DNA from: Daphnia carinata
Lineage: Eukaryota > Arthropoda > Branchiopoda > Diplostraca > Daphniidae
DNA length: 64,000 nt
Assembly (NCBI RefSeq): GCF_022539665.2
Contig: NC_081336.1
Location: 248,001 to 312,000, forward strand
Direction: 5' to 3'
In this document: positions 29,919 through 64,000 of the stretch, one piece after another
Position numbering within the stretch: position 1 is the first letter of the stretch
Layout: every line of letters begins with the position of its first letter
Notes under the pieces: model-generated
The model's input: only the letters and a program-made list of their open reading frames with translations
Told to the model about the DNA's origin: nothing
Database searches by the model: none
Made by a program: the position numbers and the translations under genes

Positions 29919-30848
29919 ATGTTTCGAACGCTTTCCCAGCGAGTATGGCCAAGGTAAGAATTAAATTTGACTCACAAACAGAAAATTACTTCCAAATCGA
30001 ACGTGTGTCGAATGGCTAAAACTTGATAGTATTCTTTTTCATTGTTAAACGAATGAAAATTACATCAACGTCGTAGGACTGTCTTTTTACGTCAGAAGCA
30101 TACTCTTCCCGATTTGCCATACGACTACAACGCTTTAGAGCCAGTTATTTCGGCGGAGATTATGCAACTGCATCACCAGAAGCATCATCAGACCTATGTT
30201 ACCATGCTTAACCAAGCTGAAGAGAAGTTTATGGAAGCAAAGGAGAAGAGTAAGTCATACAAACAATTTAATGACGCCCTTCTGCTAACAGTACGGTTTT
30301 CTTCTTGCGATTACACTAGACGATTTGAAGACGATGGTTGCTCTTACGCCTCAGCTTCGTTTTAATGGTGGCGGCCACATCAATCATTCCATCCTTTGGC
30401 AGAATTACTCTCCTAAGGGAGGCGAACCTGAAGGAGACCTGTTGAAAACGATCGAAGCAAATTTTGGCTCATTTGATACGTTGAGGAATGGCCTGTCTTC
30501 TTCGGCCGTATCTCTCCAGGGTTCTGGATGGACCTGGTTGGGCTACAACAAGAGCACAAACAGCCTAGCTATTGCCACTTGTGCTAATCAAGATCCCCTG
30601 GAGCCCACAACAGGTATGCTAATTGCTGATGAATCTTTGTGGCTTGATTAGAATTGACATGATCAACTGTTGACGTATACTAACCACACCGTGTGATTAC
30701 AGGACTCGTTCCACTGCTTGGAATTGATGTTTGGGAGCATGCATACTACTTGCAGTACAAGAGCGTCCGAGCTGACTATGTCAATAATGTCTTTAAGATA
30801 ATCAATTGGAAAGATGTGGCCACTCGACTGGCCACAGCAAGACAATAA
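29919..30848 (+). CDS. Sod2: Mitochondrial manganese superoxide dismutase
   Basis: Exons 29919-29953, 30077-30249, 30320-30613 and 30703-30848 give 215 residues. The basic N-terminus [20 protein letters not shown] is a mitochondrial presequence, followed by the mature start [14 protein letters not shown]. The metal ligands are all visible: His in [10 protein letters not shown], His in [10 protein letters not shown], and Asp and His in [11 protein letters not shown]. The enzyme turns superoxide into oxygen and hydrogen peroxide in the matrix. The length is normal and I see no defect. Confidence 0.97.
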
Positions 30849-31395
30849 TTCGTCCCGAATCCTGGGGTTTACTTACGAGCTTATTAAATAGTAATGGACT
30901 GGTATTAATTAATTTTACAATAGTTAATTCGTTTGTTTGTTTGTTTTGTTTATTTTTTTGTCTTTGAATACAGAGAAAGTATTAAACAAACTGAGTTGCA
31001 TCATGGGGCTTGTGTGAGTCATCAACAATGGATGACTTGGTGAATAGTATTTTTAATTCACTGATACTTTATCACCTGCTTCGCATTTCCCAACAGCAAA
31101 GGGGAACTATAGGAATGTAATGTCAGCAGTAACATTACCGCATTGAACGATTAGGACGTCGGATGGGGGCAAGGTTAGGGGACGTGTTTACGTTTGGCAC
31201 CGATAATAATAACGTCCCGTTGAATCATCAAATGGAGATAGAACGAGATAGGCTAAATGTTTCCACTGAGATAACAAGGAAACGCTAGTTGGTAGTTGTA
31301 GTTTAGACTACTCGCTGTTTCAGATAACAGTTGCAACAAGCTGGCTACTTTGTTAGCCTGCAGTTAGAACATAACTTCACGCTGTCCCCCTCGCC
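30849..31395. other. Intergenic region
   Basis: About 550 bases: the Sod2 3' UTR (with an imperfect GTTT repeat near 30930) and upstream sequence of the kinase-Rab gene. No gene seen. Confidence 0.5.
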
Positions 31396-33795
31396 ATGAT
31401 CTGCCTTGAGATGATGACGATCGACGAAGTGGATGAGCCGGACATCTTTTTCACTGAGCCAGATCCAGATCACCAATGGGATGGTTTCACATCTCGTTTT
31501 CTTGAAGATTTCAAGCCTCTTCGTTTGCTCGGGAAAGGTGCTTTTGGACTGGTCTTTGAAGCCCGCAAACGCATCGATCAAAAGGATTACGCTGTTAAGC
31601 GCATCAAATTGCCGTCCAATGAAGAGGCTAGAGCCAAAGTCATGAGAGAAGTCACGGTATGGTTCACTCTCCTGCCACTCGTTTGCTACTGTGGTTTTTA
31701 ATGGCAACTGTATACAGGTACTGGCTGAGTTGAACCATCGCAATATCGTTCGCTACTTTCACGCTTGGAGGGAATTCCCACCACCCGGATGGCAGGAAAT
31801 GCAGGACGCTACCGAATTGGCCAAACTGGCGTCGTCGTCCGACGATGATGGCTATCGGGGCGACATTTTGAATTCAAGTTCTACCGATGAAATGATAGAC
31901 ACAAGTGAATCACCACTACCGTCATTTGCTTCGATCTTCGGTGTTCCAAACCAGTCGCCAGCCCGACTCAACAATCGCAGCTCTTCATCCGCTGATCTGA
32001 CGACTCCGAAGAACACGCTGAATAGGAACTGCAACAGGTACCTGTACATCCAGATGGAACTGTGCCGCAAGGAGAGTTTAGCCGAGTGGTTAATGCCGAA
32101 GTCACGAAAACCGACACGCGACATTCACCAAATGTATCGTGAAATTCTCGAAGCAGTTGCCCATCTTCATTCAAAGGTCATTTTTTTGTTTGTTCTTTGT
32201 TTTGTTTACTGACTCGCACAAATATTGAACGTAATTGAGGGTGTGGTTGCGGTGTTTACAGGGTCTGATCCATCGTGATCTGAAACCGTCCAACATTTTC
32301 TTCGCCATGGACGGGACGATTAAAGTTGGCGATTTGGGATTAGTCAAAGACATGATGACGCACGACGACGTCCAGCAAAACGAAGAGACATCATCGGTTG
32401 TTGGCCAGGACCAGAAGTCATTGTCGTGCAAGAACCACACGGACCAGATCGGCACTCGGCTCTACATGAGTCCCGAACAAGTGGCGTCGAAACCCTACAA
32501 TCACAAAGTTGACGTTTACGCCTTGGCCATAATCCTGTTTGAACTGTTGGTCGAGTTCTCTACCGGTGCGGAGCGTGCCCGCGTCATACTTGATTTGAAA
32601 ACATCGTTCCAGTTCCCGCCGAACTTCAAAAGTCAATACGGCAACGCAATGGTATTGCACGTAGCTCCCAAAAAACATGATCATTAAAGAATATTTATGA
32701 TTTTCGATTGATGCAGGAGCAATTGCTTATCGATATGCTATCAGCCAATCCAAACAGACGACCAGAAGTCAAAGACATTCTTTTACGTCCATGCATTAGA
32801 GCCAATTTAGAGACGACGAGTAGGAAAGCCAAAATCACGCCGATCAAAACGAACCAAACGGTACGTTGTGTGTCTGATCTGAGACGTGTTTTGCGACATT
32901 CTGACGTTCGTTTGTCACAGGTGAACGCGCTAGCCAAGAAAAAATATTACAAGTTGCTGGTGATTGGAGACCAAAACACGGGCAAGACGTCCATCATTCA
33001 TCGCTACGTTCACGGTGTGTTCCGCGACAGATACCAGGTGACGATTGGGGCAGGTATTAATCTCAAAGAAATCAAGTGGAACGGCACGGATGCGTTGACG
33101 TTGGAATTCGTCGACATAGGAGGTACACGAGACGTGTGTCAAGCGAGTTGAATCTTTCAAATTCAAAAATGCAATGTGAAATAGGTGAAGAGAGAAGTCG
33201 GTTAATGACGAGCGCCTTCTACAGGAAAGCTGTCGGCGCCTTCGTCGTAACGGACGTGACCCAACCCAATGGTTTCGAGGCAGCCACCTTATGGAAGAAA
33301 GACCTGGACACGAAATTGAGGATGCACGATGACAGTCTCGTGCCTTCTGTTCTCTTAATTAACAAGGTGTGTCATATTGCGCCCTATACAACTCTGATAC
33401 GTCTGTTTTGTTTTTTTAATGAACGAAATGGCTCCTCTTACGCGCAGTGCGATGGAGAAACGGAAAACGGAAATCTTCCGAACAAAGAAGTGGATACAGT
33501 CAAGGTAGATCGCTATTGTCGCCAACACAAGTTCAGCGGCTGGTTCGACACGTCGGCCAAGAACGACATCAACATTGAAGAAGCTGTCCAGTTCCTCGTT
33601 GGCAAGGTAAGTCGTAATCATACTCCAATAAAGAATTCGATTGAAGTTTCAAACGGTTGAATGAATGAATAATTTTGAAACGTTTAATGGGACATGCAGG
33701 TGCTCGCTAGCGAGACGAACGAAACGCAAGTGACCAGTCATGACGACAGCCTCAACATTTCCTCAGCTCCTTTCAACATCCGCAGCTGTTGCTGA
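31396..33795 (+). CDS. PERK-type eIF2alpha kinase domain fused to a Rab32/38-like GTPase
   Basis: Exons 31396-31656, 31718-32176, 32262-32651, 32717-32860, 32921-33122, 33185-33366, 33448-33606 and 33700-33795 give 630 residues. Residues ~35-430 are a PERK-like kinase: LGKGAFGLVFEARKR, AVK lysine, HRNIVRYFHAW, a serine-rich insert, YLYIQMELCRKESL, HRDLKPSNIFF, DLG in place of DFG, and IGTRLYMSPEQ. There is no signal peptide, lumenal domain or membrane segment, unlike true PERK. Residues ~435-630 are Rab32/38-like: GDQNTGKTS P-loop, DIGGEERS where Rabs have DxxGQE, YRKAVGAFVVTDV, INKCD, GWFDTSAKNDINIEEA, and a C-terminal CC for prenylation. The joining intron (60 bases) keeps frame whether removed or retained. 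The likely substrate, eIF2alpha, is an inference. Confidence 0.85.
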
Positions 33796-33862: not shown

Positions 33863-33868
33863 AATAAA
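33863..33868 (+). terminator. Polyadenylation signal of the kinase-Rab gene
   Basis: AATAAA lies 68 bases after the stop codon, placing the transcript end shortly downstream. Confidence 0.6.
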
Positions 33869-34335
33869 GTTGCTTGCCGCTATAGACGTTGAAGAATAAA
33901 AATGGAGACATTAACAGTATACGCGATGGTAGGGCTCTCATATACTACACGACAGCAGCCGCCCCTTTTTGAAAGGGACAGAGTCACTGAAGGTGTTGTC
34001 CAAAACGATTGATTAATATGATCAAAATAGATACGTGCACAATAACATTCAGGGCGGAATAAATGTATAATAAATTTGGTGGACGTCATAATAAGCAAAA
34101 AACATTGTTTCCAACCATTTTCCCCCTCTGTGAACGGGAAAGTGGCACTCGCAAATAATTTATACAAGGAGACATAAAAAAAACAAAAAAACATAAACGT
34201 ATTGTAATGAGACACGCGACCTGTTTGAAAAGTCGAACGAAAAGTCGATGGTTGCACATCTGCGGGTCTACAACGCTCGTTGCCGTAAAAACAATTGAAT
34301 TTGAACTCGTCGTCATTTTTGGTTGAATTCGTCCG

Positions 34336-34755
34336 TTAGACGCAATGATATTTGACTTGCAAATATTTCAAAACACCCGGACAAGTGTCGCCAAACACCT
34401 CGTTGGAGGCGGGCAACACGCAGGTGGTCTGGCCGTTGCACAGCATGCCCACCAAATCCGTGTGCGATTCGTCGTAGCAATTGTTGATGCGGTCGGCTCC
34501 CGAACGATAACCTCCGCGCGAGCAAACGTTGTGACCAATGCGACCGTAATTGGCGAACTTGATGTCGAGGCTCTTGCCATTTCGACAAGCCAACGTTTTC
34601 GATGTAAACTGGCAGATGAATTCAGTTTCCGCCTCTGATTTTAAACATCATTTTTTTTTTATTTCCATTTCGTTGAATGAAGGTCTTTGATCAAACTTAC
34701 CCGCACCGATGGCGACTAGGACGATGAAGCAGCAAAGGATGCCAAAATATTTCAT
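34336..34755 (-). CDS. Small secreted SUEL-type (rhamnose/galactose-binding) lectin
   Basis: Minus-strand exons 34701-34755 and 34336-34634 give 117 residues. The first exon is a signal peptide (MKYFGILCCFIVLVAIGAG). The second encodes one SUEL lectin domain: TLACRNGKSLDIKFANYGR, CNGQTTCVLPASNEVFGDTCPG and the closing YLQVKYHC. Cysteines are spaced as in the family. Such domains bind galactose or rhamnose outside the cell, often in defence or egg-surface proteins. No other domain is present. The role is inferred from the family only. Confidence 0.85.
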
Positions 34756-37153: not shown

Positions 37154-38966
37154 ATGGACGACAGGATGCCGCATTGTTTTTGCGTAACGATTGTTTTGAT
37201 ATTGGCGCTGCCGACTTGTTTTGCGGCTGCATCCGATTGGAAAGCAAAATTTGAACAACTTGAGGAAAACTATGTGAGCCAATATCGTCTCTTATCTCAA
37301 ATCATTGATTATACTAATATTTTATGTTATACCACAATCATCTAAAAGGACAAAATGAAAGCACATTTCGAAACTTTGGAGAGGAAAGTCGATCAGCTGG
37401 AAGCCAAAGTTAAGAAACAGGATTCAATTTTGGCTGTTTTGGAAAAAGGACACAGGCCTTTGAAAGATAGTGTCGATATCAACCAACATCGCCGTCACAA
37501 CGCCACCCTTCGTACTTGCCACGAAATCCACGTAGCAAATCCATCGTACACCTCCGGCATGTACTGGATCGATCCAGATGGTCACGGCATTGGCGATCCA
37601 CCCATCCACGTCCACTGCGACATGGTACATAAAACGAATAACGTAACAAAAGGTGCTGAAGGGTTCCAATCAGGTATTCCATTTTGTTTTTGTAATTTGC
37701 CATAACATTTGAACTGATTACATTACAACATTTATGAATGCTGTCAAAGGTATGACATCTATATTGCACGACAGCGAGTCGAAAAAGGATATTGGGAATT
37801 GCACCGAACCTGGATGTTACTCGAGACAAATCAAACATTATGCGAGCGAACGGCAAATCGCAGCTTTGATTCAATTGTCCAGTAGCTGCACCCAAAACAT
37901 TTCGGTATGTGGCTCAAAGCTCTGATTGATTAGAAAGATCGTTGGGTTCTGAAATTCACAGTTGATTGCATCAGTATCATTGTAGAAATACGCCTTTGAA
38001 TTACAATGGCATCGCCTACGCCTGGTGGAATGGCAAAGACGGCCAAAAGCACGAGTTCTCCGACTGGTTAACTTCGTGTGAACAACTCTCTGGCAAAAAA
38101 TACGCAATCAACGGTGTGAGCGACAACGTGTGATCGTTCAAAAAAGAAATGCAATAAAAATTGAGGACGTGGAAAAATGTTTGCAGGTGTCATCAGAGGC
38201 GAGCGTTTGCCGATTACGCGCGTTCATTTTAGCAACCCGTTCCAAGGATCCGGCCAGTACACCGTGAGTCGGCTGCGATGTAGCGGAAAGGCAAAAGTGG
38301 AGCCGATGCCGACGTCGTGCGATGATTTGTGGCGGATGGGACACACTCTTAATGGGTTCTACTCGGTCAGAGGAGCTAAACGAATGGAAACTGTTTACTG
38401 TCAATTCGATAAACGACCCAATGAACAAGGTGTTTCTCGTCTTACGAATGATTCAAAAGTGCTAAACGGTCATTTTGTTTTGAAAAGGTTTCCAAAAATG
38501 GATCGGATACGTCGACGTCAAATCCCAGCCGACGTATTTCTACGTTCAGAAGAACACTACCTTCAATAGCACGAATGTTTCAATTCCATTTGAGGTTGAA
38601 AAGGTCAACGTCGGCAACGCCATGGATTTGAAAAATGGCACCTTTACAGCTCCACGTGACGGCCTTTATTTCTTCTCCTTTAGCTGTTTGACCACCGCTG
38701 GAACCACTGCAAAACCCGTTTTCGCTGCGGTAGGCCTCTTTTTGAACGCCGTACAAGTCGGGGAGGCTTGGGTACACGAGGGGACCACCACGGTCAACCG
38801 AGACAGTCCACTGACGTTTCAATCGACGCTGACATTGAAAGCGGGGGACCGTATCTGGTTGCAAATTAAAAGCTTAGGGGACACGGGCTTTCTGTATGAC
38901 GACAAGAATGGTTATAATCACTTTAATGGTTTCATGTTGGACGAAGAAATTACCCGATCCCTTTGA
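37154..38966 (+). CDS. Secreted coiled-coil, cysteine-rich and C1q-domain protein, copy 1
   Basis: Exons 37154-37273, 37349-37652, 37750-37904, 37975-38113, 38187-38429 and 38488-38966 give 479 residues. The order is: signal peptide (CVTIVLILALPTCFAAA); coiled coil (FETLERKVDQLEAKVKKQDS); a region like the collagen C-propeptide/contactin-associated module (TCHEIHVANPS, GMYWIDPDGHGIGDPP, HVHCDM, CTEPGCYSRQIK); a linker module (CDDLWRMGHTLNGFYSVRG); and a C-terminal C1q domain (FEVEKVNVGNAMDL...GLYFFSF...VGLFLNA...DRIWLQI). A donor at 37674 instead of 37653 would add seven residues. C1q proteins of invertebrates act in recognition outside the cell; the ligand is unknown. Confidence 0.85.
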
Positions 38967-39365: not shown

Positions 39366-41166
39366 ATGTTGCATTCTTTTTCCGAGACAGTGCGATCATT
39401 TCTTTTGATTTTGGCGCTGTCTACTTGTTTCACGACTGCGTTTGATTTGCAAGCAAAAGTTGAGCAACTCGAGAAGAACTACGTAAACCCATATCACCTC
39501 CTTATCTCATTGATGTATTGATTTCTGATATTTTAGTTATATATTCACTACACAAAGGTAAGAATTAAAGAACATTTGGAAGCCAAAATCATGGATTTGG
39601 AGACGAAAGTTGGTCGACTGGAAGACAAAGTTAAGGAACAGGATTCACTTTTGGCTGTTTTGAAAAATGGGCACAAACCTTTGAAAGATAGTGTTGACAT
39701 CAACCAACATCATCGCTACAACGCCATTCTTCGTACTTGCCACGAAATCTACGCAGCGAATCCGTCGTTCTACCCCGGTATGTACTGGATCGATCCAGAC
39801 GGCCACGGCATTGGTGATCCACCATCTCCGTCCACTGCGACATGACGGGAGGATGCCATAACAAGGGTGAACGACTCTGGGTACATTTTCCGCAATATAT
39901 AGAGATGATTGCATTGAATAATGTTTGCAAAGGTGTACATCATATTTTGCATGACGGCGAGTTGAAAATGGACATTGGACATTGCACCGAACCTGGATGT
40001 TACTCGAGGTCAATCAAGTATTACGCGAGCGATAGGCAAATCCAAGCGTTGATTCAATTGTCCCATGGCTGCGCACAAAACATTTTGGTATTTCGATTAA
40101 AGCTCTGATTTTGAACGATCGTTTACCTTATAAACTGGCGGTTGGTGGTGCAGTACTATTGCAAGAAATCGCCATTAACCTACAACGGGACAGCCTACGC
40201 TTGGTACGACGACAAAGACGGCAAAAAAAACGTGTTTACCAATTCGTTGACGGAGTGTGATGGACCCTCTGATAAACAACATGTGGAGAACGGTGAGAGC
40301 GATTTATTTATTTGATTTAAAAAAAAAAACAAAACGAAATGACAATTGAAATCGGTGCCAAAAATCCAGGTATCGTAACAAACAATGGTCTGCCGTTTGC
40401 GCGCTTCCATTTTAGCAATCCGCTGAACGGCTCCGGTCAACACGAAGTGACTCGGTTACGATGTCAAGGAAAGGCGAAGACGGAGGCAATGCCGACGTCG
40501 TGCGAAGATTTGTGGCGAATGGGACACACACTCAACGGAATCTACTCGGTCAGGGGAGCTAAACAAATGGAAACTGTTTTCTGCCAATTCGATAAACGAC
40601 CTAATGAACAAGGTAATAGATCAATGGTCACATGTGGATTGTGGCATTTTTATTTGATGAACGTTATCGAACATTTTTGATGCACAGGTTATCAAACATT
40701 AATCGGATACGTCGATGTCAAATCTTTGCCGACATATTTCAACGTTCATAGGCTCAACAGTTTCAACTCAACGGGCGTTGCTATACCATTTGAAGTGGAA
40801 TCGGTTAACGTCGGCAATGCCATGAATTTAACAACGGGAATATTCACGGCACCACGTGGTGGCATTTATTTCTTCTCCTTTAACGGATTGGCCTTTAGTG
40901 CAGCTACTGAAACATGGCTTTTCCTCAGAGTAGGCCTTTTTTTGAACGGAAAAAAAATTAGCGAAACTTGGGAAAGGGAGAGGGACATCACCGGAGAGCA
41001 TTATAGTCCAGTGACAATTCAATCAACGTTGAAATTGAAAGCCAACGATCGTATTTGGTTGCAGATTGCAGAAATGCGACCGACGACCACGCTGTATGAT
41101 GATACAGATGGATATACTCGCTTTACAGGTTTCGTGTTGGACGAGGAATTTGCAGTGCCTAATTGA
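39366..41166 (+). pseudogene. Secreted coiled-coil/C1q protein, copy 2, with one-base frameshift
   Basis: The six-exon plan matches copy 1: 39366-39482, 39558-39866, 39933-40087, 40154-40292, 40370-40612 and 40688-41166. The signal peptide (FLLILALSTCFTTA), coiled coil, DPDGHGIGDPP block, CTEPGCYSR and C1q domain are all present. In exon 2, where copy 1 reads CCACCCATCCACGTCCAC, copy 2 reads CCACCATCTCCGTCCAC. It is one base short and the frame ends in TGA at about 39843. Every other exon, splice site and domain is intact. The gene is therefore either recently disrupted or carries a sequencing or assembly error. It would otherwise encode about 480 residues. Confidence 0.75.
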
Positions 41167-42527: not shown

Positions 42528-46516
<3,989 letters not shown>

Positions 46517-51000: not shown

Positions 51001-51974
51001 CGGTTTGCACAGCCGATTTGATTTCATGGGCTTTCCAAATCGCGAGAGGCATGGATTATTTGGCTAGCAAAAAGGTATGTCAATAAATAATTCTCTGTTG
51101 TACACATCAAACAAACTACTTTTTGTTTTGTTTCGATTTAAAGGTCGTTCATGGCGATTTGGCTGCTCGCAATGTTTTGCTGGCCAACAACGGCGTGGTC
51201 AAAATAGCCGATTTTGGCATGTCCCGCAAAATGTATTACAAGGGAAATTACCAACAATCGGGACAGGTAAACTTCATAATTTCTCAATAAAATGGATTTG
51301 TAGTTGATTGACGAATCATCTTCGCATAGGGTTTGATGCCAGTCAAGTGGATGGCAATCGAATCGCTGACAGACCGCGTTTTCTCAACTCGATCTGACGT
51401 CTGGTCTTATGGCGTTTTCGTCTGGGAACTGTTCACGCTCGGTAAAGTGCCATATCCAGGTAAGTCCTATTTTACCGTAGGCTGGAGGCCAAAGTGCAAT
51501 GTTTCAAATTCTCTATCATTATAATTATTTAATTTTCGAGGTATGGAAGCTAATCACGAGCTTATAAAGCAACTGGAAAAGGGCTACCGAATGGAGAAAC
51601 CTGCTTTTGCGCCCAATTACCTCGGAGAAATAATGGCAGGTTGCTGGAAATTGGACCCGAAGGAGAGACCGACCTTCAGCCAAATCGAAGAACTCATTTG
51701 CGGCCAAATGGAATCGACTGTGTGCGCCAACTATTTCAATCTGTGTAAAACGAATGAAAATTTCAACCAAGAGAGAGTTGATCCTCCGGCCATTGAACCC
51801 TCCGGGCTTGTAAAACCGCCCGTCTGTGACGATATGCTGAAAGAATCGAAACCGTTGCCCGTCTGTGACGAAAAGCAGAAAGAATCGAAATCGTTGCCCG
51901 TCAGTCGTGGCAATAGTGTGAGTATTTTCAGTCACCTCAAAAGAGGCTGGAGTTTAAACGAATATTTCATTTGA
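48075..51974 (+). CDS. VEGFR/PDGFR-like receptor tyrosine kinase, copy 2
   Basis: Fifteen exons (48075-48338, 48416-48584, 48649-48800, 48861-49023, 49092-49265, 49337-49522, 49578-49699, 49760-50017, 50082-50223, 50292-50519, 50575-50862, 50926-51074, 51144-51266, 51330-51459, 51541-51974) give 993 residues. Domains match copy 1: signal peptide, Ig-like repeats, membrane helix ([20 protein letters not shown]), [19 protein letters not shown] juxtamembrane, then kinase with [30 protein letters not shown] and [10 protein letters not shown]. The 63-base intron at 50863-50925 is open in frame, so retention would add 21 hydrophobic residues to the kinase insert. The tail has a ~13-residue repeat ([26 protein letters not shown]) missing from copy 1. 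Confidence 0.9.
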
Positions 51975-60067: not shown

Positions 60068-61468
60068 ATGAACGAACGAGAGTTTCAGTCTGTGGCCGAC
60101 CGTCAAGTTACGATGAGACCTCCGATGATGGGATTCAGAAAGTCAGGGGAAACGATCCAATCTTCAGCGGTCGCGTTTTTCACGCGTTTACTTCGTCCGA
60201 GGACAATCGTTTCGTTATTCCTCGTCGTCTGCCTTGGCTATTTACTTGTAGTCAGCAGCAATCGTCACGTGATAGACAATAATCAATTAGGCCTGACGGA
60301 GAGCAACACATTCCAATCTGAAACTGAGGTTTTTGAAACAAACACATTTGATTTTCTTTTGTTTAATTTCATTTCATTTTGATAGGATGGTAATTCAGGA
60401 TCAGAACCGAAGAGGATCTTGTACTGGACGGGCTATTACGATAGGCCGGACATGATTTTTGGCTTTGGCCAGCAACCGTTTATCAAGGCCGGTTGTAAGG
60501 TAACCAATTGCGTGGCCACAGCCGACCGCAATCTATTGGATCAGAGCGACGCCATCATTTTTCACGCCGGTCAGTTCAATTCGAGCGATTTGCCGAGCAA
60601 AAGACTTGGACATCAGCGATACATTTTCTATTTATTCGAAACGTTGCCGTCGGCTCGTGACAGCGCCATTTATTTTTCTAACGTTGTGGACAATTTCTTC
60701 AACTGGACTATGACACATAGACGAGACTCTGACATTTATTGCGCAGAACCTTACGGCAAAATTAGACGCAAAGCTTCGTCCCCCTGGATCGAACAATTAC
60801 CACCCACTTTAGCACCTGGAGAACGGCCGATAGCGCCAGCCAAATTGATGGAAACAGTTCGAAATCATCCGCGATTAGCTAAGAAAGATAAACTATTAGC
60901 CTGGTTCTGTTCAAATCAGAGGACTCACGGTCGCAGGGAAGATTACATCCGACAGCTAGGCCAGTACATGCCCGTCGACATCTACGGCAACTGCGGGAAT
61001 CTGACGTGTCTACCAAAGAACAGCGACAGGTGCAATAATTTATTAGACGAATACAAATTCTATCTGTCGGCAGAAAATTCGCTTTGCGCCGACTACGTCA
61101 GTGAGAAGTTCTACCGTGCTTTACAGACGGATATTATTCCGGTGGTTTACGGAGGGGCGGACTATGCAGCATACGCTCCGCCTCATTCCTACATCCATGT
61201 AGCCGATTTTGCATCGCCCAAGGAATTGGCAGAGTACTTGTTGTTGTTGGACAAGAACGAGGCTCTTTACTTGAAATATTTCGAATGGAAAAAGGACTAT
61301 GACGTGCTGAGGGGTCCGCTCGATGGTTGGTGCGATTTGTGCGAGAAATTAAACAATCCGCAAGAGCCGATTAAAAGCTACGAGAGTATGGCCAAATGGT
61401 GGTACGATGATGTGCCTTGTTATCCGGGCGAAACGTTTATCCAAACAGTCCTCAATCATGATTCGTAG
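60068..61468 (+). CDS. Alpha-1,3-fucosyltransferase (GT10), copy 1
   Basis: Exons 60068-60328 and 60386-61468 give 447 residues. The type II anchor is IVSLFLVVCLGYLLVV near residue 50. The catalytic domain runs from RILYWTGYY onward and contains FNWTMTHRRDSDIY, LLAWFCSNQRT, REDYIRQL, VDIYGNCG and the GT10 signature YKFYLSAENSLCADYVSEKF followed by PVVYGGADY. The C-terminal WCDLCEKL has the CxxC typical of FucTs. It transfers fucose from GDP-fucose to GlcNAc on N-glycans or related chains in the Golgi. It could be core alpha-1,3 or Lewis-type. AATAAA follows at 61522-61527. Confidence 0.93.
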
Positions 61469-62711: not shown

Positions 62712-64000
62712 ATGAAATTTCATCGGTTGAATCTCTTTAAAAGAATCATCGTAACAATTTTGGGAATCTTTTTCATCGTTGTCGTTGTGTTCCGTCGTCG
62801 TGGAACTCTTCCACCGTCACTGTCGTCCATCAACTTCAATTCGATTAGAGATGATCTTCCTGCTGAGGTAAGTGCAAAATTTTAATTGATTTAAATAGTA
62901 AGATAACTTTATAATAATTTTCACAATTCAGACGTCAGAAGAGGTTAACGTGAAACGTAAAATCGTTTTGTACTGGAACACGTTCTATAACCAAACAGAC
63001 ATGACATTCGGTTTTGGCCAACAACCGTTCATCGACGCTGGATGTCAAATAACTAATTGCATCGCAACCAACGATAGAAGTTTATTCAGTCAAAGCGACG
63101 GTGTCATCATTCACGCCGGTGATTACCAGGAACGCGATCTACCAACGCATCGTTTGCCTCATCAGAGATTTATTATGTTGCTGTTTGAAACTCTTCCCGG
63201 CGGACATCAACTGCCGTTCTTTTCGCGTCCACATTTCTACAATTGGACGATGACCCATCGAAGGGATTCAGACATTTACCTGAGCAAATCGTACGGTGCA
63301 CTGAGACGACGTCGCAATGCCGAGACCATCAACCAACTGCCTCCCAAGTTGAAACCCGGCCAAACGTTGCCTAAACCGAGAGACTTATTCACACGAACAT
63401 ATCCGGAATTGGCAAACAGAACGAAATTGATTGCCTGGTTCAATTCGCATTGCCCGACGCACAGCCAACGTGAGGATTACGTCAAGAGATTAGCCGAGTT
63501 CATCCCGGTCGATATTTACGGCAAGTGTGGGACGTTGGAATGTTTGCCTTACAACGATCCTCGATGCGACACACGTATCCTCGTTAATTACAGGTTTTAT
63601 TTAGCCGCAGAGAATTCCCTGTGTCCGGATTACGTCACTGAAAAGTTTTATCGTGCCTTGATGAACGACATCGTGCCCGTGGTGTTTGGCGGGGCCGATT
63701 ACAGCCAGTACGCCCCGCCCAATTCTTACGTGAACATTGCCGATTTCCAATCACCGAAGGAGTTGGCTGAATATTTGATGTTGCTGGCCAAAAACGATGC
63801 TCTTTACAACAAGTATTTCGATTGGAAGAAAGATTACGAAGTGATACGAAAACCACTGAACGGTTGGTGCGACTTGTGCGAGAAATTGAACGATCCAACT
63901 GTCGAAAGCAAAAGTTATGAAAGTGTTGCCAAGTGGTGGTATGATGAAACTCCTTGTTTGGCAGGCTCATCTTACATCAAGTCAATGTTTCAAACTGTGA
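62712..64000 (+). CDS. Alpha-1,3-fucosyltransferase (GT10), copy 2 (3' end cut by window)
   Basis: Exons 62712-62867 and 62932-64000. The frame is still open at the last base (...FQTV, then one base), so the stop lies outside. The anchor is IIVTILGIFFIVVVVF. The catalytic domain parallels copy 1: IVLYWNTFYNQTDMTFGFGQ, FYNWTMTHRRDSDIY, REDYVKRL, YRFYLAAENSLCPDYVTEKF, PVVFGGADY and GWCDLCEKLN. The intron position and phase are the same as in copy 1, so the two arose by tandem duplication. All sequence seen is intact. Confidence 0.92.

What the first reader, a model, noticed from the sequence alone, without database searches (positions are those of the whole stretch)
31396..33795. PERK-type kinase joined to a Rab32/38-like GTPase in one frame
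Seen: eight phase-compatible exons read through from a complete eIF2alpha-kinase-like domain into a complete Rab domain with a C-terminal CC. No ATG in the Rab frame lies between the two. Known: true PERK has an ER-lumenal sensor and membrane anchor, both absent here, and Rab32/38 act on lysosome-related, ER and mitochondrial membranes. Inference: a prenylated, membrane-addressed stress kinase whose location or activity is set by a GTPase switch. I know of no described kinase-Rab protein of this type.
Basis: partly seen in the sequence, partly recalled or inferred. Interest (0 to 1): 0.9.

Follow-up and report, generated by a model that had tools for sequence, protein, structure and literature searches.

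The report
Stress kinase fused to Rab switch
At least two water flea species carry a gene that joins a stress-type protein kinase, of the sort that shuts down protein synthesis, to a membrane-trafficking switch protein, a combination that I did not find described and that may let cells start a stress response from a chosen membrane.

Summary
Window 31396-33795 (+) in Daphnia carinata encodes one 630-residue protein: a PERK-family eIF2alpha-kinase domain (about 31-400), a disordered linker (about 403-420) and a Rab32-family GTPase (about 423-610) ending in CC. All seven introns are GT-AG and frame-compatible. A gene-model artefact is very unlikely. D. sinensis has the full protein (82%). A 2,439-base contig of an unnamed species encodes 633 residues; a second record with identical coding residues keeps two introns, so the first looks like spliced mRNA. 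Two more divergent unnamed records also cross the kinase-Rab join. Intron positions match the genome's own separate PERK and Rab32 genes, so the fusion arose from intron-bearing copies. Catalytic and GTP-binding motifs are mostly kept; the Rab carries an invariant Q-to-E change in its G3 motif and an altered switch I. Most likely it is a soluble PERK duplicate that gained a prenylated Rab32-type module, giving a membrane-addressed eIF2alpha kinase; substrate, location and GTP control are inferred. It is not PERK itself, which exists elsewhere in the genome with its lumenal part. Two sister kinases are fused to a region shared with a NACHT (NLR-like) protein.

The parts
31396..31656 (+). exon 1: start ATG, 30-residue N-tail, kinase glycine loop, VAIK lysine and alpha-C
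   Evidence: in-frame TAA at 31372 upstream
31718..32176 (+). exon 2: rest of kinase N-lobe, insert loop (about 121-190), start of C-lobe
   Evidence: flanking intron positions shared with own PERK
32262..32651 (+). exon 3: HRDLKPSN, DLG, GTRLYMSPEQ activation segment, alpha-G FSTGAER
32717..32860 (+). exon 4: end of kinase C-lobe and linker
   Evidence: linker of low model confidence
32861..32920 (+). intron 4 at the join: 60 bases, phase 0, no stop in frame
   Evidence: the 20 residues it would add are absent in P0002, P0003, P0004 and P0133
32921..33122 (+). exon 5: Rab P-loop GDQNTGKTS, switch I, start of G3
   Evidence: ordinary Rab32 core exon also starts at a phase-0 acceptor
33185..33366 (+). 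exon 6: rest of G3 (DIGGEER), central Rab, NK of NKCD
   Evidence: intron positions as in own Rab32
33448..33606 (+). exon 7: CD of NKCD, TSAK motif
33700..33795 (+). exon 8: hypervariable tail ending in CC, stop TGA
33863..33868 (+). AATAAA, candidate polyadenylation signal (another at 33895)
   Evidence: motif only

Best explanation
A duplicated PERK gene copy without lumenal and transmembrane parts was joined, probably intron to intron, to a Rab32 gene copy. The product is one protein: an eIF2alpha-type kinase on a flexible linker followed by a Rab32-family GTPase with a CC tail. SHOWN: the single reading frame, the same fusion in relatives, transcript-like evidence in one relative, the family of each half, kept kinase motifs (DLG in place of DFG) and kept GTP-binding motifs. 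INFERRED: the CC is geranylgeranylated; the Rab module takes the kinase to Rab32-type membranes (ER-mitochondria contacts, endolysosomes); crowding there drives the dimerisation that activates eIF2alpha kinases (recalled biology), so eIF2alpha is phosphorylated and translation falls in response to a trafficking or organelle cue instead of lumenal misfolding. The G3 Q-to-E change suggests an altered GTPase cycle.
For: Fusion. Origin: kinase introns at REVT|V, HSK|GLIHRD and NAM|EQLL match own PERK in place and phase, and Rab introns at DIG|GEER, LLINK|CDG and FLVGK|V match own Rab32; phase-0 acceptor before both Rab core exons. Family: the kinase lies with two sister soluble kinases (100/98; 99/98) among PERKs; best solved match PERK 274 bits, best GCN2 190. 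Fusion Rabs are one clade, 100/100, in the cleaned tree, best solved match Rab32. Motifs. Two confident domains and a low-confidence linker; Foldseek rows for PERK have TMt 0.86-0.91 and for Rab32/38 0.87-0.94 among the 50 shown. CC tail in P0001, P0002 and P0003.
Against: No assay or localisation. The model gives no trusted orientation between the domains (pTM 0.60). P0004 lacks the activation-loop threonine (LLYTSPEQ). Switch I reads IGAG here, not the IGVD of Rab32, so usual Rab32 effectors may not bind. One of the three shared kinase intron sites (NAM|EQLL) also lies at the matching place in the genome's GCN2, so only two are PERK-specific here. No row named D. pulex or D. magna was among those I saw, so spread in the genus is unknown. 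P0139 and P0140 start with M just before the Rab.
Confidence: 0.5

Rival explanations
1. Immune-type sensor: the Rab32-like half is a bait or monitor for organelle tampering by parasites, and the kinase is the output that stops translation.
For: The two sister kinases are fused in one open frame to a region that elsewhere in this genome sits on at least one NACHT protein. Rab32 is part of a host defence pathway and is cut by a bacterial protease (passages of PMC11475232). Wheat Pm4 is a kinase fusion protein that confers disease resistance (start of abstract of PMC12830362 in a listing).
Against: The Rab half is well conserved (98 of 128 aligned residues kept in P0004), unlike a fast-evolving bait; no infection data.
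Confidence: 0.18
2. The Rab half is mainly an anchor: prenylation holds the kinase on membranes and GTP exchange plays little part.
For: CC tail kept; the G3 Q-to-E and switch I changes suggest departure from a normal Rab cycle.
Against: P-loop, NKCD and SAK motifs kept, and against P0004 the Rab core keeps more residues than the kinase C-lobe (98/128 against 113/202), more than an anchor would need. Against P0002 the gap is small: Rab 159/177, C-lobe 175/202, N-lobe 84/90.
Confidence: 0.17
3. The kinase acts on Rabs or Rab effectors, LRRK2-like, not on eIF2alpha.
For: LRRK2 binds Rab32/38 directly (abstract of PMC4216093); Rab kinases phosphorylate the switch II region of some Rabs (start of abstract of PMC8469595 in a listing).
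Against: PERK descent and alpha-G residues FST..ER as in PERK.
Confidence: 0.1
4. Gene-model artefact: two neighbouring genes wrongly merged.
For: The join lies at an intron with an open frame; no cDNA of this species was available to me, and P0002 is itself a predicted protein.
Against: 633-residue record P0003 on a 2,439-base contig, uninterrupted joins in P0004 and P0133, same fusion in D. sinensis.
Confidence: 0.03

Closest known systems
PERK (EIF2AK3)
   Same: Kinase ancestry, three kinase intron positions, activation segment GT.LYMSPEQ, alpha-G FST..ER
   Different: No lumenal sensor domain and only a 30-residue N-tail; DLG instead of DFG; added Rab. A true PERK is a separate gene here
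Rab32/Rab38/Rab29 (Rab7L1) GTPases
   Same: Best solved matches in that order, introns shared with own Rab32, CC tail
   Different: A kinase in front; DIGGEER instead of DIAGQER; IGAG instead of IGVD; a separate ordinary Rab32 is present
Large Rabs (Rab44, Rab45/RASEF, Rab46)
   Same: A C-terminal Rab on a longer multidomain protein (passages of PMC8303950)
   Different: Those carry EF-hand and coiled-coil parts; no kinase domain is mentioned in the passages seen
LRRK2 and other ROCO proteins
   Same: GTPase and kinase in one chain; LRRK2 works with Rab32/38 (abstract)
   Different: Roc-COR precedes the kinase and is not a prenylated Rab (recalled); another kinase family
Long Rab32-like proteins of decapods (P0121-P0131)
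   Same: A Rab32-like core in a protein of 750-967 residues
   Different: No kinase Pfam domain listed in 11 of 11; ordinary G3 motif in the 2 read, P0121 and P0128

Membership tests
eIF2alpha kinase family | kinase domain nearest to eIF2alpha kinases | tested here: met
   PERK, then GCN2, then PKR and HRI are the top solved matches; placed among PERKs in trees
eIF2alpha kinase family | catalytic residues and substrate-contact helix alpha-G | tested here: met
   G-loop, VAIK, HRD, D of DLG, T-loop Thr and FST..ER present; relative P0004 lacks the T-loop Thr. The role of alpha-G is recalled
eIF2alpha kinase family | phosphorylates eIF2alpha Ser51 | not testable with these tools
   needs an assay
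PERK | lumenal sensor and transmembrane segment | tested here: not met
   Pfam finds kinase and small-GTPase families only; N-tail of 30 residues closed by a stop at 31372, no hydrophobic span outside the kinase fold
Rab32 family | sequence and structure nearest Rab32/38 | tested here: met
   tree grouping with Rab32-like rows apart from three other Rabs
Rab32 family | GTP-binding motifs G1, G4, G5 | tested here: met
   GDQNTGKTS, NKCD, TSAK
Rab32 family | IGVDF switch I and catalytic Gln in G3 | tested here: not met
   IGAG and DIGGEER
Rab proteins | C-terminal prenylation cysteines | tested here: met
   CC in P0001, P0002 and P0003; the modification itself not tested
ROCO/LRRK | Roc-COR-kinase order | tested here: not met
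   the kinase precedes the GTPase and no COR family is listed; the Roc profile also hits the Rab half, but more weakly than Ras (67.5 against 102.8 bits)

The most novel reading that the evidence does not exclude
Cladocerans evolved a plug-in family of cytosolic PERK-like kinases whose lumenal sensor was replaced by other sensors, Rab32 in one line and part of an NLR-like protein in another, so that translation shutdown is triggered by organelle-membrane or pathogen cues: a further class of integrated-stress-response kinase, read in one case by a GTPase switch.
Probability: 0.25. Interest if true: 0.9.

Novelty: new variant of a known kind. Interest (0 to 1): 0.72.

Why it matters
PERK, GCN2, PKR and HRI are told apart by what sits beside the kinase (recalled). 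A natural kinase of this family that carries a Rab instead of a sensor would show that the integrated stress response can be wired to a trafficking switch, and gives a ready-made protein for testing whether membrane recruitment alone activates such kinases. Rab32 already links ER stress and mitochondria in mammals (passage of PMC6213962), so the fusion joins two functions that are neighbours elsewhere.

Tried and rejected
Two separate genes: rejected on P0003, P0004, P0133 and D. sinensis. Missing upstream lumenal exons: rejected; the open frame of a superoxide dismutase gene ends at 30848 and an in-frame stop lies at 31372. Misread ordinary PERK or Rab32: rejected, both exist elsewhere in the genome. 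Lack of an ATG as proof of fusion: dropped, the ordinary Rab32 core exon lacks one too.

Results against or unclear: in the first kinase tree (44 rows) the four fusions were not one group (2 changes; one group in 18% of 200 bootstraps), with the long-branched partial P0004 outside and the two sister kinases beside the other three. In a smaller tree (27 rows) P0004's place is open and one group of four is not rejected (p-AU 0.466); nor is a group of these, the sister kinases and own PERK (p-AU 0.229). In a first Rab tree (37 rows) the five fusions and the fragments P0136, P0138, P0139, P0140 shared one branch (94/99), the five alone not being a group. For the cleaned tree (24 rows) I dropped 13 rows: those four fragments; P0141, P0143, P0144; and own-genome L002, L008, L010, L012, L039, L041. 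The DNA behind P0002-P0004, P0132 and P0133 was not seen. Selection tests (dN/dS) were not possible: no second-species DNA was held. Species of P0003, P0004, P0132, P0133, P0136, P0138, P0139 and P0140 are unnamed. Literature: nine searches on the subject and one for D. carinata genome papers; two gave no paper, and in the others I saw the rows listed, often a small part of the hits (for example 15 of 1,239 and 8 of 515).

Full report
Check of the observation. The window lies in contig C6 (248001-312000) of a 108-Mb genome and its protein is identical to a deposited Daphnia carinata protein. Eight exons at 31396-33795 join into 630 residues, 7 of 7 introns GT-AG. A spliced alignment guided by the D. 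sinensis protein gives the same internal splice sites. Pfam finds Pkinase and Ras. The kinase half matches solved PERK best (274 bits; best GCN2 190) and the Rab half Rab32, then Rab38, then Rab7L1.

The fusion is real. Of the 120 rows listed (of 3,959 hits) for the whole protein, 4 carry both kinase and Ras Pfam domains: P0001 D. carinata, P0002 D. sinensis (623 aa, 82%), P0003 (633 aa, 82%) and P0004 (417 aa, 53% over 61%). A search with the Rab part, with candidates held to 0.55-1.75 times the fusion's length, gave 15 hits: the same 4 fusions and 11 proteins with decapod names (taxonomy recalled) and no listed kinase domain. A search with the Rab part alone gave 13 hits, of which I read 9: P0133 runs from the kinase's last lobe into the Rab; P0132, P0136 and P0138 hold Rab pieces beside what look like introns read through; P0139 and P0140 are short first-Rab-exon pieces starting with M, which may be a true ATG or an alternative start and cannot be settled; P0134, P0135 and P0137 are Rabs without kinase tail and without the DIGGEER motif. 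P0003 comes from a contig of only 2,439 bases, and P0132 repeats 143 of its residues exactly in three blocks, with two intervening stretches at the sites of introns 6 and 7, so P0003 most likely is spliced mRNA. P0004 and P0133, as predicted proteins, cross the join without interruption; their DNA was not seen.

Origin. The kinase half shares three phase-0 intron sites with the genome's own PERK, one of which also lies at the matching place in its GCN2; the Rab half shares three sites, including the phase-1 site in the G3 motif, with the genome's own Rab32. Both Rab core exons begin at a phase-0 acceptor without an in-frame ATG. The simplest history, an inference, is joining of two gene copies within introns. 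Own PERK keeps its lumenal region and, by reading, a hydrophobic span. A GCN2 is also present.

Sister kinases. Two tandem genes on C6 (about 2.781-2.787 Mb) have PERK-like kinases that group with the fusion kinases (100/98; 99/98). By solved structures the one tested scores GCN2 and PERK almost alike (200.7 and 197.1 bits). Like the fusion they lack the alpha-G intron found in own PERK. Each runs in one open frame from the kinase end into a long region without a Pfam match over cut-off; the L044 piece has no solved match. That region gives 24 matches in the genome, 3 of them the pair's own; the one relative scanned carries a NACHT domain (E 1.2e-10).

Anatomy. The N-tail is 30 residues. The most hydrophobic stretch (325-343, mean 1.76) is a helix of the kinase C-lobe; PERK controls P0008 and P0015 reach 2.06 and 2.34. 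Kinase motifs are present, with DLG for DFG; alpha-G reads FSTGAER. Rab motifs GDQNTGKTS, NKCD and TSAK are present; the usual G3 glutamine is glutamate in 5 of 5 fusion sequences, and IGVD reads IGAG, VGAG or IGAV. Against P0004 the Rab core keeps 98 of 128 aligned residues and the kinase C-lobe 113 of 202; against P0002 the figures are 159 of 177 and 175 of 202. From memory, glutamate at this position in Ras does not block GTP hydrolysis as other changes do; this is a lead, not a test. The predicted model has two confident domains and a linker (403-420) under pLDDT 50, mean 77.3, pTM 0.60; its halves match PERK and Rab32/38 structures.

Mechanism. The best reading is a membrane-addressed eIF2alpha kinase. 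The steps shown are the protein, its descent and its motifs. Prenylation, location, activation by crowding, eIF2alpha as target and GTP control are inferred. Rivals are an immune-type sensor, a mere anchor, and an LRRK2-like Rab kinase.

Novelty. The parts are known kinds; the combination is new to me and was not among the rows seen in nine literature searches (listed in Tried and rejected). The two named deposits mention the kinase alone or call it hypothetical. I rate it a new variant of a known kind.

Noticed in passing
L044:2860-6000 and L045:1561-5410 (G000 C6 about 2.781-2.789 Mb): Two tandem PERK-like kinases, each fused in one open frame to a large region shared with a family that includes a NACHT (NLR-like) protein: an eIF2alpha-type kinase on part of an NLR-like protein.
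   Followed up: partly
G000 C6 about 8.08-9.36 Mb, also C5, C1, C3: A family of long open frames (up to 2,151 aa) sharing that region; the one scanned (L056) has a NACHT domain.
   Followed up: partly
window 30057-30848: Iron/manganese superoxide dismutase gene directly upstream on the same strand (Pfam on two of its open frames).
   Followed up: partly
window 34336-34647 (minus strand): A SUEL galactose/rhamnose-binding lectin domain just downstream.
   Followed up: partly
window 46091-46513 and 51525-51971; 60386-61465 and 62902-63999; 38484-38963 and 40681-41163: Three pairs of similar open frames, the first pair kinase-tail-like by reading, suggesting tandem duplicates.
   Followed up: no
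P0005 (Halotydeus destructor, 916 aa): A deposited mite protein with two PERK-like kinase regions in one chain, by reading its sequence.
   Followed up: no
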